DNA of 64,000 bases, taken from contig NZ_JAUSRB010000002.1 of the NCBI RefSeq assembly GCF_030811595.1, positions 1,054,001-1,118,000 on the forward strand. Direction: 5' to 3'. Shown here piece after piece: positions 34,251 to 50,640 of the stretch (position 1 is the first letter of the stretch; every line of letters starts with the position of its first letter). This DNA is from Streptosporangium brasiliense (GTDB taxonomy: Bacteria; Actinomycetota; Actinomycetes; Streptosporangiales; Streptosporangiaceae). The position numbers were made by a program, and so were the translations under genes. The notes under the pieces are model-generated. The model was given only the letters and a program-made list of their open reading frames with translations. It was not told the DNA's origin and ran no database searches.

Positions 34251-34346
34251 AACTACTTCTCGGTCACGGCCGGACCTGTCCGGCAGGCGCCCCACTCGGA
34301 CGGGTCACCCAGCTTGACGCCGGTGACGCCGGTGCCGCAGCGGCCC
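34251..34346 (-). repeat. msrA 3'-end copy R1 (outermost)
   Basis: About 95 bases matching the last codons of msrA (50543-50640), in the same orientation. Read on the minus strand the frame stays open to a TAG at 34255-34253. It encodes a variant MsrA tail: GRCGTGVTGVK, then LGDPSEWGACRTGPAVTEK. Both cysteines of the msrA tail are kept. Similarity stops at the codon for the Gly before the first Cys. It marks the left edge of the island, next to the RiPP cluster. Confidence 0.8.
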
Positions 34347-34401
34347 AGCGTCGAACGGCTCTCGCCGTACGCGGTTCCAGTCCGTGAACGGCGACCACGG
34401 G

Positions 34402-34920
34402 CTAACGCGGCCCCGAGCGGAACTCCGTCCAGAGATCGACGGCTTCCTCCAGGTCGAGTGCCGCCACATCCTCGCGGGCCATGCCAGCTGTGTAGATCAA
34501 CCGACTGGCGAGCCAGTCGGGAACCGGCTCCCGCGCGGGGACCTCGCCGGTGTGAATGTGATCGGTCAGAGCTCCGAGACGGTCGATGACCTCACCGAGA
34601 CGGACAACCTCGGGACGCGAGCCGCCGGCCGCCCGGACCCGCGCCTTGGCCTCGGCATAGATCTCCGCGTCGGCCCTCTCCCCGACCGCCCAGACCTCAC
34701 AGATCTCGACCACCTTGTCGTCGGTGATCCGGTAGACGACCCGCCAGGTGTTCCGGCCGACGACAAGCTTGCGGAATCCGGTCAGTTCCCCACCGAGCGG
34801 GTAACCGGCCTCGGCGTTCTCCAGCAGCAGAAGGATCTTTTTCAGGATCTTGGGTACGGCGTCCGGACCGATCCTGCGGAGATCGTCAATGGCCGGGTCG
34901 GTGAATACGACGTCGGGCAC
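34402..34920 (-). CDS. RelE/ParE-family toxin with C-terminal extension
   Basis: A 172-residue protein. Residues 1-90 have the RelE/ParE fold: VVFTDPAIDDLRRIGPDAVPK, then LVVGRNTWRVVYRITDDKVVEICEV, with basic and aromatic residues on the last strands. Such toxins cut mRNA on the ribosome or block gyrase. Residues 95-172 are an extra helical part (LASRLIYTAGMAREDVAALDLEEAVDLW) not found in ordinary 90-residue RelE toxins; its role is unknown. The antitoxin gene lies two bases upstream in the same operon. The module sits between msrA-end copies R1 and R2. Confidence 0.82.
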   Translation of the reverse strand: MPDVVFTDPAIDDLRRIGPDAVPKILKKILLLLENAEAGYPLGGELTGFRKLVVGRNTWRVVYRITDDKVVEICEVWAVGERADAEIYAEAKARVRAAGGSRPEVVRLGEVIDRLGALTDHIHTGEVPAREPVPDWLASRLIYTAGMAREDVAALDLEEAVDLWTEFRSGPR

Positions 34921-34922
34921 CG

Positions 34923-35234
34923 CTACTCGTCGTCATCGGGGAGCGCGGTCAGCGACTCACGGGTATGTCCGAAAGCGGAGAGGACGTCGTCGATCGACGT
35001 TCGCCGCCCGCTGTCGGTCGCCGCCCGCACGAGAACCAGCGCCAGGTCGCGCAGATCGGCCGCAGCCTCTTCCAGCTCGTTGAGACGCCGCATGCTCACG
35101 ACCGCCGCGACAGGCTGGTGCCGACGGGTCACCACCAGATCCGCCCCCTGCTCCGCCTCGGCCACCAGGCGGGCCACCCCGCGCTGCGCGGCCTCGGTGA
35201 CCGTGAGCGCGGTCGCGTCATGGAGAACAGCCAT
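34923..35234 (-). CDS. Phd/YefM-type antitoxin
   Basis: A 103-residue antitoxin. The N-terminal half, TVTEAAQRGVARLVAEAEQGADLVVTRRHQPVAAVVS, is the Phd/YefM DNA-binding fold; the acidic C-terminus (SIDDVLSAFGHTRESLTALPDDDE) should wrap the toxin. The ATG at 35234 was chosen because a promoter -10 box lies six bases before it; the reading 39 bases further upstream crosses that promoter. The protein should repress its own operon through the CTATA/TATAG repeats there. Confidence 0.85.
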   Translation of the reverse strand: MAVLHDATALTVTEAAQRGVARLVAEAEQGADLVVTRRHQPVAAVVSMRRLNELEEAAADLRDLALVLVRAATDSGRRTSIDDVLSAFGHTRESLTALPDDDE

Positions 35235-35240
35235 ACAAAA

Positions 35241-35269
35241 ACTATATAGACAACTATACAGAACAGCAA
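35241..35269 (-). promoter_or_regulatory. promoter/operator of the RelE-Phd module
   Basis: On the minus strand, -35 TTGCTG (35269-35264), a 17-base spacer and -10 TATAGT (35246-35241); the ATG begins seven bases after the -10 box, suggesting a leaderless message. TATAG and CTATA (35245-35258) form a 5-base inverted repeat over the -10 region. Confidence 0.6.
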
Positions 35270-35475
35270 TCACCGGACCGCGCCCGGACCGTCGCAGCGA
35301 GACGACCTGCGCCTGAGAGATCGGCGGAGCCCAGGCCGCAGTACTGGAACGGGGACCCAGGCGCGGATACCCCTCCGTTCCGTCGCCGGCCCATCCGGTC
35401 GAAAGACCGCAGACTCTGACCCAACGAGGGAACGGCCCCGGGAACCGGCTCGCGAGACCAAACGTCTGAGAGCAC

Positions 35476-49550: not shown

Positions 49551-49668
49551 AAGCCATACAGCGCGATCCAGAGGATTACTCCTCGGTGGGAACTAGGCTC
49601 GGCCGGCAAGCTGTCCACTCGGATGGGTCACTTAGCTTGACGCTGGTGCCGCCAACGCTGCAGTAACC
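49551..49668 (-). repeat. msrA 3'-end copy R6
   Basis: It matches the msrA end plus part of the right terminator arm (AGCCATACAGCG, 49551-49562). The frame is open: GYCSVGGTSVK, LSDPSEWTACRPSLVPTEE and a TAA stop. Both tail cysteines are kept. It separates the accessory interval from the second HigBA module. Confidence 0.8.
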
Positions 49669-49722
49669 CGCGAGGGGGCGGCAGCATGACGATAGGTTTC
49701 CTGTCGGCGTTGAGGCCTCAGC

Positions 49723-50022
49723 TCAAGCAGCGGGAGCCCGTGGCGTCAGGCGGACCTCGACATCCGCGTCCAGGGCACGCGCCAGACGCTCCAGAACCGG
49801 CAACGTGGGAATAGTCCCGCCCGCCTCGAACCGCGCCACCGCCGACTGTGTCATGCCTGCTGCACGAGCCAGGTCGTTCTGACTCCAGCCCCGCCCCTCA
49901 CGCATCCCCCTGACCGTCTTACCCAGTTCATAGGCGAGACGTGTGGCCTCATAGGCCTCAGCCGCGCCCGGCTCGGCCATCCGACGATCTCTGAGCTCTC
50001 GCCAGCTCCCCTGCTCGCTCAT
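49723..50022 (-). CDS. HigA-like XRE-family antitoxin
   Basis: A 99-residue protein with an acidic, Ala-rich N-terminal helix (MSEQGSWRELRDRRMAEPGA) and an XRE helix-turn-helix (GRGWSQNDLARAAGMTQSAV then RFEAGGTIPTLPVLERLARAL). It is the antitoxin of a HigBA-type module with toxin first; its ATG overlaps the toxin stop (ATGA). It is intact, whereas its toxin gene is frameshifted. A decayed copy of the same module lies at 39557-40204 in another msrA-end interval. Confidence 0.88.
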   Translation of the reverse strand: MSEQGSWRELRDRRMAEPGAAEAYEATRLAYELGKTVRGMREGRGWSQNDLARAAGMTQSAVARFEAGGTIPTLPVLERLARALDADVEVRLTPRAPAA

Positions 50023-50376
50023 GCTGTCTCTTCTTCCTCGTCGACGGTGTGCGCCAGTTCGACACAGCGACGCATGGCTCGCCGAGCCCGCTCAACCTCA
50101 CGTTCATCACGCATCCGCGTCTTGTGAAACACGGTCAAGAGCACAATCCGGCGATGAGGTGCGATCCAGTAGGTGATGCGCATGGCGAACTCGTCAAGAT
50201 GAAACCGGAGCTCACGTAGCTTGCCGTCAAGCTGCTTCGTGTAGGGCTCCCCTAGCAGAGGCCCTTCCGCCGCAAGCAGCTCAACATAGAAAGCCGCCCT
50301 CGCGAACGATGCCGCAGGTAGACCTTCAAGCCACTTCCGAACTTCCGGTTCCAGTCCTACGGTACCCCCAGCTCAT
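50019..50376 (-). pseudogene. HigB-like (Gp49 family) toxin, frameshift in a G-run near the start
   Basis: Starting at the ATG at 50376 (MSW), the reading meets a run of five G where the other copy has four. With one G removed, the frame reads through LEPEVRKWLEG, RFHLDEFAMRITYWIAPHRR and IVLLTVFHKTRMRDEREVER to a normal end. No usable start codon lies in the open frame, so the toxin is probably not made unless slippage at the G-run restores it. The operator-like TCATAGCGTTGATGCTATGG (50373-50392) covers the start codon. Confidence 0.8.
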
Positions 50377-50489
50377 AGCGTTGATGCTATGGGCCACACT
50401 TCCATCGCACTCTGCTTTCAACCGAACACAGTCGCCCACCGAAGGAGCATCCTCGGTGAGGACGACAGTGGAACCGGACGATCAACGAA

Positions 50490-50524
50490 TACGGCTCGCG
50501 CCCAGGAATTGAGCGCGAGCCGTA
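50490..50524 (-). terminator. msrA terminator hairpin
   Basis: TACGGCTCGCGC (50490-50501) and GCGCGAGCCGTA (50513-50524) form a perfect 12-base stem with an 11-base loop, 18 bases after the msrA stop. It has no T-run, as is common in actinomycetes. Copies accompany R3 and R4. Confidence 0.8.
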
Positions 50525-50542
50525 CAGCGGAGCGCTGTGAAG

Positions 50543-50640
50543 CTACTCCTCGGTCGGGACCAGACCTGTCTGGCAAGCACCCCATCCCGATGGGTCACCT
50601 AGCTTGACGTTGGTGCCGCCGATGCCGCAGTAGCCACCGG
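50543..50640 (-). repeat. msrA 3' end, live member (R7) of the repeat family
   Basis: The last 32 codons of msrA plus the stop, the parent form of R1-R6. It covers the resolving cysteines C202 and C220. Similarity with the copies generally begins around the Asn-Pro-Gly-Gly-Tyr codons (50626-50643), the probable crossover zone. Confidence 0.85.

What the first reader, a model, noticed from the sequence alone, without database searches (positions are those of the whole stretch)
34251..50640. Seven-member array of msrA 3' ends spanning a 16-kb island
The end of msrA (terminal codons, often with the terminator) recurs at 34251, 36737, 38163, 39397, 40352 and 49551, always in the msrA orientation, and only between the RiPP cluster and msrA. 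This is what repeated insertion at one site in the 3' end of msrA would leave: each arrival supplies a new tail and displaces the old one. Gene 3' ends are familiar targets for integrating elements, but I know of no described msrA-based array. The copies are about 60-100 bases, longer than the two-base core of serine integrases.
Basis: partly seen in the sequence, partly recalled or inferred. Interest (0 to 1): 0.92.

Follow-up and report, generated by a model that had tools for sequence, protein, structure and literature searches.

The report
Toxin-antitoxin cassette array at msrA
In soil actinomycetes, mobile DNA keeps inserting into the last codons of the repair gene msrA, each newcomer rewriting the end of the enzyme and pushing the old end outward, which has built arrays of small toxin-antitoxin cassettes that look like integrons but are tied to a different kind of recombinase.

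Summary
Extra copies occur in 15 of 16 Streptosporangium genomes and in other Streptosporangiaceae genera. Between copies lie mainly 0.8-2.4-kb segments, often toxin-antitoxin modules.

The copies are large-serine-recombinase (LSR) attachment sites. Two LSR families hit two points of msrA: A at a GG in codon 206 (GIGGT), B at the YHQQY codons. Joining A's half-sites gives a 50-bp imperfect palindrome centred on that GG (19/24; 0 of 100,000 shuffles). Of 17 family-A half-sites in 341 genomes, 16 run straight into a displaced msrA tail. Junctions between different neighbours switch at or just right of GG. Tail type does not follow the msrA-body tree. So each arrival does supply a new tail.

What moves the small LSR-less cassettes is unresolved: their junctions are attL-like, and known LSRs are not expected to join attL to attL. 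Mobilisation in trans by LSR-A is my leading, unproven reading.

New variant of gene-3'-end LSR islands (like SCC at rlmH), with integron-like small cassettes.

The parts
50543..51232 (-). msrA; current C-terminus is the type-2 tail [24 protein letters not shown]
   Evidence: Pfam PMSR 1.4e-62 over residues 51-202; TIGR00401 over 48-202
50592..50638 (-). att-like site in msrA: B half, central GG (50617-50616), P' half (attL type)
   Evidence: site profile, classification and position
50490..50524 (-). msrA terminator-like hairpin in the right half of the tail
   Evidence: fold of the 90 bases holding it, z -5.9
49723..50372 (-). HigBA-like toxin-antitoxin cassette (Gp49-like toxin 50019-50372; HTH antitoxin 49723-50022)
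   Evidence: Pfam Gp49 3e-15, HTH_31 1.5e-16
49508..49675 (-). displaced msrA tail / proximal end of the LSR-A element (GG at 49650-49649)
42044..49649 (.). LSR-A integrative element, about 7.6 kb, with a GntR regulator at 44565-44819 and unassigned ORFs
   Evidence: bounded by a P' half at 49.65 kb and the P half at 42044-42067; a 3-kb part holding the LSR is 93% identical in G011 L102; GntR
42068..43489 (+). large serine recombinase of family A, 473 aa
   Evidence: Resolvase 2.5e-35, Recombinase 1.5e-11, zinc ribbon 1.1e-9
42044..42067 (-). P half-site GGGTCACATAGATACACGTTGGTA directly before the LSR start codon
40444..41598 (+). IS630-like transposase between two sites
   Evidence: DDE_3 9e-19
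40348..40413 (-). displaced msrA tail, left half missing beside the IS630-like gene
39554..40222 (-). second, degenerate copy of the HigBA cassette
   Evidence: 39454-40222 is 81% identical to 49618-50394; frames interrupted relative to the intact copy
39408..39534 (-). displaced msrA tail
38294..39145 (-). Phd/YefM-like (DUF6247) gene plus an ORF without family match; the cassette recurs in other genomes and genera
   Evidence: weak, sub-cut-off Phd and DUF6247 matches; no NCBIfam match; recurrence
38092..38279 (-). displaced msrA tail with terminator region
36864..37924 (-). PIN_3 toxin plus HTH_17 antitoxin-like cassette
36690..36803 (-). displaced msrA tail of short type
   Evidence: short-tail model; half-sites unclassified
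34402..35249 (-). ParE/RelE toxin plus Phd-like antitoxin cassette
34239..34367 (-). most distal displaced msrA tail

Best explanation
The msrA 3' end is a shared insertion port. SHOWN by sequence: LSR family A crosses over at a GG in codon 206 (GIGGT). Its attP is a ~50-bp imperfect palindrome whose right half, read in frame, encodes the new MsrA C-terminus (NVKLGDP...). Insertion leaves attL (msrA B half + P' half) at msrA and attR (P half beside the LSR gene + displaced old tail) at the far end. LSR family B joins msrA about 50 bp upstream, in the YHQQY codons. INFERRED: because B's tail spans the A site, a B insertion can bring a fresh A target, so A and B can alternate. The many 0.8-2.4-kb LSR-less cassettes, often toxin-antitoxin modules, mostly have a P'-type right half and a B-type left half, recombine at the same point, and are most likely mobilised in trans by LSR-A or a relative. 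Each arrival must restore an in-frame tail with stop codon and second cysteine, so msrA survives while old tails drift outward. Toxin-antitoxin cargo probably makes losing the array costly.
For: Copies and orientation. All 7 family-A LSR genes compared start beside the P half, which runs into a non-type-2 msrA tail. P-half pattern: 17 places in 16 of 341 family genomes, 0 reversed-pattern controls; 16 of 17 abut a displaced msrA tail, 9 of 10 if the seven used to make the pattern are left out (15 by translation, G045 by eye). Conservation around GG starts at about -21 and fades by about +28 over 168 sites. Linkage: same-left pairs (18) stay at 0.79-0.89 identity to -1, then fall to background; same-right, different-left pairs (31) are at background to -1 and 0.79-0.83 from +2 to +29 (background 0.75, 0.73, 0.48, 0.52 there). 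Tail type needs 8 changes on the body tree of 18 rows, shuffled mean 8.5. Displacement: the cassette beside msrA in G014 is 9 kb away in G007; the window's msrA-adjacent HigBA cassette is second in G001 and G004. LSR co-location: 6 of 53 in the genus set, expected 0.12. The best shared cassette exceeds msrA-body identity in 60 of 88 cross-genus pairs. A second Cys follows GYC in 39 of 39 msrA printed (counted by eye).
Against: No excision, circle or recombination was observed; everything is from sequence. Small-cassette junctions are mostly B.P' (attL-like), and attL x attL prefers antiparallel alignment in known LSRs (PMC3783163, passages), so trans-mobilisation conflicts with canonical rules. 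46 of 177 sites could not be assigned to clear half-site classes. Sites were found by similarity and the core was picked by motif, so part of the profile is by construction. The right-hand junction is resolved only to between -1 and about +11, since all tails are alike there. The body tree is weak (9 of 15 inner branches open). 46 of 130 genome pairs have no cassette more alike than msrA, and the best cassette of each pair was taken. Arrays or sites far from msrA (L098/L112, L105, L110, L111, L113, L115) are only partly explained. The G012 P half lies at 8.04 Mb, away from msrA. The LSRs in L106 and L143 are not shown to abut a tail. Six of 20 array-bearing genomes have no PF07508 hit. Only 24 of 84 P' sites keep a significant hairpin.
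Confidence: 0.82

Rival explanations
1. Homologous recombination: cassettes and tails are exchanged by RecA through 60-200 bp of tail homology, with no site-specific enzyme needed for the small cassettes.
For: Tails in the window are 77-93% identical; no recombinase matched in the small-cassette representatives scanned; attL x attL is not a canonical LSR reaction.
Against: Linkage switches next to GG without a gradient on the left side. Conservation stops at -21 although left flanks differ further out. Breakpoints should scatter over 60-200 bp.
Confidence: 0.12
2. The small cassettes are not mobile: they are what is left of LSR elements that inserted at msrA and lost everything but the toxin-antitoxin module and ends.
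For: LSR-A elements of about 6-7.6 kb (L102 and window) occur in the same arrays; toxin-antitoxin modules resist deletion (general knowledge); one HigBA copy is decayed.
Against: Decay of the middle should leave an LSR-type P half at the distal end; only 5 of 150 array sites are P.B' and 66 are B.P'. Similar ~1-kb cassettes recur in different orders, genomes and genera, often more alike than msrA.
Confidence: 0.18
3. A third, unseen recombinase (tyrosine, or a small serine resolvase-type enzyme without LSR directionality) moves the small cassettes, using the LSR-A site geometry.
For: No PF07508 hit in G109, G116, G113, G052, G036 and G090, 6 of the 20 array-bearing genomes searched. attL-like junctions suit an enzyme that joins identical sites. 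PF00589 recombinases are frequent in all 16 genus genomes (12-55 each).
Against: No such gene matched among the 20 window ORFs scanned with Pfam apart from the LSR and the IS630-like transposase. Crossover and half-site geometry coincide with LSR-A.
Confidence: 0.2
4. The copies are tandem duplications or pseudogenes of msrA ends with no mobile element involved.
For: All are fragments of the same gene end in one orientation.
Against: Distinct tail types, unrelated inter-copy DNA, attR with the LSR P half, and sharing of cassettes between genera.
Confidence: 0.02

Closest known systems
Staphylococcal / Enterococcus cassette chromosome (SCC, ECC) at rlmH
   Same: LSR-driven islands inserted in the 3' region of a conserved gene; ~50-bp att sites with dyad symmetry; several att sites and composite islands (passages of PMC6222049, and PMC7029136).
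   Different: Target is msrA, not rlmH. The LSR scores far below the Ccr cut-offs. The inserted half-site rewrites a visibly different C-terminus. Two LSR families use two points in the gene. Many units are ~1-kb toxin-antitoxin cassettes without a recombinase. Hosts are Streptosporangiaceae.
Sedentary chromosomal integrons / superintegrons
   Same: Directional array of small cassettes with recombination sites at their borders, holding toxin-antitoxin cassettes (PMC11023631, two passages; the rest is general knowledge).
   Different: Sites look like LSR half-sites in a coding 3' end, not attC hairpins (attC was not modelled); no tyrosine integrase matched among the window ORFs scanned; the anchor gene is host msrA, not intI/attI.
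Actinophage-type LSR integrative elements
   Same: Resolvase-Recombinase-zinc ribbon LSR whose gene abuts the attachment site; attP of the expected size with a central dinucleotide.
   Different: The nearest phage and plasmid LSRs listed are below 40% identical; viral contigs gave only 27-28% relatives and no P-half match; tandem accumulation at one gene.

Membership tests
Large serine recombinase integrative element (family A element) | LSR domain architecture | tested here: met
   Resolvase + Recombinase + zinc ribbon, 473 aa
Large serine recombinase integrative element (family A element) | attP of ~50 bp with dyad symmetry about a central dinucleotide, next to the LSR gene | tested here: met
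   19/24 about GG, 0 of 100,000 shuffles; P half adjoins the start codon
Large serine recombinase integrative element (family A element) | hybrid attL and attR flanking the element | tested here: met
   B.P' at msrA or a neighbour; P half joined to an msrA tail at the LSR end in 16 of 17 places
Large serine recombinase integrative element (family A element) | excision and integration activity | not testable with these tools
   needs a bench assay
SCC / ECC (cassette chromosome) | insertion in rlmH 3' end | tested here: not met
   target is msrA
SCC / ECC (cassette chromosome) | ccrAB or ccrC recombinase | tested here: not met
   window LSR: CcrB 63 bits vs cut-off 900; CcrC 53 vs 900; CcrA 29 vs 700
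Integron | IntI tyrosine integrase with attI beside the array | tested here: inconclusive
   no Phage_integrase match among the 20 window ORFs scanned with Pfam; the ORFs of other arrays were not all scanned, and PF00589 genes occur elsewhere in the genomes
Integron | attC sites recombined as folded single strands | not tested
   no attC model was run; junctions look like LSR half-sites instead
Toxin-antitoxin cassette | toxin and antitoxin genes between two att sites | tested here: met
   ParE/Phd, PIN/HTH and Gp49/HTH in the window; PIN, Fic-Doc/RHH and Phd-like in relatives
Toxin-antitoxin cassette | toxicity and neutralisation | not testable with these tools
   needs expression assay

The most novel reading that the evidence does not exclude
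A non-integron cassette-array system: a serine recombinase that can act on attL-type (B.P') sites captures, stacks and shuffles ~1-kb toxin-antitoxin cassettes at a host enzyme's last codons. Each cassette's half-site doubles as the coding sequence of a working MsrA C-terminus, and a second LSR family, hitting about 50 bp upstream, can bring a fresh target (a two-recombinase ratchet).
Probability: 0.4. Interest if true: 0.92.

Novelty: new variant of a known kind. Interest (0 to 1): 0.8.

Why it matters
It gives a natural, replicated case (several genera, many arrays) of serine-recombinase islands that accumulate in tandem in a protein-coding gene and write the enzyme's C-terminus as they land. 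It supplies a predicted attP/attB pair for an integrase family at the msrA C-terminus. If the LSR-less cassettes prove to be moved by LSR-A, it would be a second, mechanistically different way to build integron-like arrays, and would need an LSR reaction (attL-type sites with each other) that current rules disfavour, so the directionality rules become directly testable. It also offers an explanation for clusters of toxin-antitoxin genes behind msrA in Streptosporangiaceae.

Tried and rejected
1. Chance similarity: rejected by E-values and by recurrence in other genomes. 2. tRNA-linked island: no tRNA in the window. 3. Empty site for the secondary array L112/L098: searching its flank in the genus found, beyond the two occupied genomes, only distant homologues of one neighbour gene, so no empty site was recovered. 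4. First palindrome test had the half-site cut one base short and gave a null result; corrected, both told here. 5. Carriage by known phages, plasmids or viral contigs: nearest listed LSRs below 40% identity; the Phd-like cassette matched 10 plasmid records over 10-38% of its length at 65-75% identity; P-half pattern absent from viral contigs. 6. PADLOC scan: two Fic proteins (SoFic), an HTH-M78 protein and the window antitoxin (general HTH models) matched; the window's other ORFs did not. 7. Rows dropped: hits below the stated E limits; sites with core score under 10 or short flanks (168 of 177 kept; 93 sites; left pairs out of register skipped); 18 of 39 bodies went into the tree; L139 gave no msrA (39 of 40 loci recovered, two of them one genome). 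Four of 18 cassette families (F07, F08, F10, F11) were not scanned against Pfam. 8. Literature: searches of the open PMC library for msrA with integrase/attB, serine recombinase with toxin-antitoxin and att terms, integrase target genes, LSR with peptide methionine sulfoxide reductase, and Streptosporangiaceae with integrase/toxin-antitoxin showed no described msrA array in the rows listed (in only part of the hits was listed); subscription papers are not covered.
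Full report
CHECK. A 300-base query around the msrA 3' end finds six other copies in the window, all in the msrA orientation, E 2e-7 to 6e-46; the next hits are 0.004. Tail models add a seventh displaced copy at 41993-42046, so there are eight sites including msrA.

SPREAD. A protein search of 16 genus genomes shows extra msrA C-terminal fragments in 13 of 16, near msrA and in some cases far from it; with the nucleotide models it is 15 of 16, G010 being the one without. 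Of the 46 genus and family loci scanned, which were mostly picked because they had hits, 41 hold more than one copy, and all copies within a locus are on one strand. Named loci of Sphaerisporangium, Nonomuraea, Microbispora, Sphaerimonospora, Herbidospora and Streptomyces torulosus also show additional copies.

CARGO. In the window, between the copies and on the msrA strand, lie a Gp49/HigB-like toxin with HTH antitoxin, a decayed second copy of it, a weakly Phd-like pair, a PIN_3/HTH_17 pair and a ParE/Phd pair. In the genus loci, 45 short intervals (817-2429 bp) fall into 18 families by DNA similarity; one family merges several modules. Ten families, holding 37 of the 45 intervals, have a representative with a toxin-antitoxin-type match (PIN, Fic/Doc with a ribbon-helix-helix partner, Fic, Phd, ParE, HigBA, HTH plus M78 with DUF3368); not every member was scanned. 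Others carry a GmrSD-type HNH domain, a flavin reductase or an SDR with TetR; one gave no match and four were not scanned. The same Phd-like, ParE, PIN and HigBA cassettes recur in arrays of other genera, recognised by eye from their sequences. Of 130 genome pairs that share a cassette of at least 500 bp, 84 have the best one more alike than the msrA body; across genera 60 of 88. This points to horizontal exchange.

RECOMBINASES. The genus set has 53 PF07508 hits; 6 lie in the msrA array loci, where 0.12 would be expected. In 20 further family genomes, all chosen because they had two or more matches, 11 of 35 lie on contigs with arrays and near them, by my count from the coordinates; the test used at least 10 against 0.12 expected. 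Two distinct families are involved. Family A (473 aa; window 42068-43489) was found at 80% identity or more in six of 120 family genomes (one partial), each time on a contig with msrA tails; the six more distant places (64% or less) were not near msrA where positions were shown (positions). Family B (~505 aa) sits in several arrays, and in five of them abuts a tail, and also lies elsewhere.

SITES. Reading outward from the start codon of each of 7 family-A genes gives the same P half, then GG (TG in one), then a non-type-2 msrA tail; the base right after GG varies with the tail. Joining this P half with a type-2 tail consensus gives a ~50-bp imperfect palindrome: 19 of 24 positions symmetric about GG, none of 100,000 shuffles as good, best of 6518 random GG centres in the window 17; against 67 actual type-2 halves the 7 P halves average 16.9. 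So the DNA that encodes NVKLGDP in the window's msrA has the form of a P' half-site. A 20-base P-half pattern occurs 17 times in 16 of 341 family genomes, 6 genera, with no control match. In 16 of 17 it continues as a displaced msrA tail such as GTGVSCPVGLTSGEA*: 15 by translation, G045 by eye; three or four are degenerate; G012 is the exception. Leaving out the seven used to make the pattern, it is 9 of 10. Family B joins in the YHQQY codons, about 50 bp upstream, which explains why some copies start near codon 189.

The zinc-ribbon-domain motif of an LSR is reported to lie 5 bp closer to the centre in attB than in attP (passage of PMC3783163). Here GGTCAC lies at -23 to -18 in the P half and GGYTAC at -18 to -13 in the B half; this comparison is by eye.

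CROSSOVER OF THE SMALL CASSETTES. Around GG, conservation begins at about -21 and fades by about +28 (168 sites, 36 left and 52 right clusters). Sites were found by similarity and centred by a motif, so the centre is partly built in; the abrupt left edge is less so. Pairs of sites with the same left cassette and different right cassette (18) keep identity 0.79-0.89 to -1 and then fall to background. Pairs with different left and same right (31) are at background to -1 and 0.79-0.83 from +2 to +29, where background is 0.75, 0.73, 0.48 and 0.52. Seven same-left pairs with one P' and one B' right half drop from 0.81-0.98 on the left to 0.05 at +12 to +19. The junction is therefore between -1 and about +11, as for LSR-A, and not spread as homologous recombination would leave it. 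A looser left threshold gave a weaker left signal (0.57-0.59 against 0.46-0.50).

DISPLACEMENT. Tail type (native, type 1, type 2) needs 8 changes on the body tree of 18 rows, against a shuffled mean of 8.5 (as low in 97 of 200); four supported sister pairs differ in tail, though 9 of 15 inner branches are open. The cassette next to msrA in G014 is 9 kb downstream in G007; the window's msrA-adjacent HigBA cassette is the second unit in G001 and G004. All 39 msrA printed have a second cysteine after GYC (by eye; L022 and L150 are one genome). From memory, these correspond to the resolving and recycling cysteines of E. coli MsrA; one literature search did not find a paper on this. The curated MsrA domains end at residue 202, so site A cuts after the domain and each arrival has to supply the last cysteine, stop and, at msrA itself, a terminator-like hairpin (z -5.9; only 24 of 84 P' sites have z below -2).

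MECHANISM AND WHAT IS OPEN. Insertion of LSR-A elements in msrA is well supported, and of LSR-B elements supported by their junctions. The B tail spans site A, so a B insertion can bring a new A target; family-A attR sites carry short tails, but alternation is an inference. The small cassettes are bounded mostly by B.P' sites (66 of 150 array sites including the long form; 33 B.B'; 5 P.B'; no P.P'; 46 of all 177 sites unclear). In known LSRs attL x attL aligns antiparallel and is not expected to be productive (PMC3783163). So either LSR-A is less strict, or it works with a helper, or another enzyme moves them. Six of 20 array-bearing genomes have no PF07508 hit, which fits past rather than present activity, or another enzyme.

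COMPARISON. SCC and ECC are the nearest in mechanism (passages): LSRs, a gene 3' end, ~50-bp dyad sites, composites. The target, the recombinase family (Ccr scores far below cut-off) and cassette size differ, so it is not an SCC. Integrons are nearest in architecture, but no IntI-type enzyme matched among the window ORFs scanned and attC was not modelled.

Noticed in passing
L096 (G006): This genome has an array of seven tails but no msrA of this type; only a 44% identical MsrA was found. The anchor gene seems lost while the array remains.
   Followed up: no
L102 and L103 (G011): Part of the msrA downstream flank (a 1016-aa gene as in L091) with tails lies about 2.7 Mb from msrA in opposite orientation, as if an inversion broke the array.
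   Followed up: partly
L098/L112, L105, L110, L111, L113, L115: Arrays or single sites far from msrA. Their outer junctions are not clean; L115 has a left half partly like the P half next to a P' half. Relocation or pseudo-site insertion is undecided.
   Followed up: partly
L158-L160, L163, L164, L167, L168, L171, L186, L187, L189: Family-B LSRs outside msrA arrays run, by eye, from a similar upstream stretch through a CTA-type junction in most cases into what look like other coding sequences, which suggests LSRs that each target a different gene.
   Followed up: no
L106 4698-6932 (G013): LSR inside an 18-kb interval between msrA and a displaced tail, but its start is not next to a tail copy in the searches made.
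   Followed up: no
window 40348-41598: An IS630-like gene lies directly beside a tail whose left half is missing, suggesting insertion or deletion at the site.
   Followed up: no
G012:C1:8039796: The only P(A) half of 17 that does not run into an msrA tail; beside a PF07508 gene about 0.1 Mb from the contig end, so a possible secondary target.
   Followed up: no
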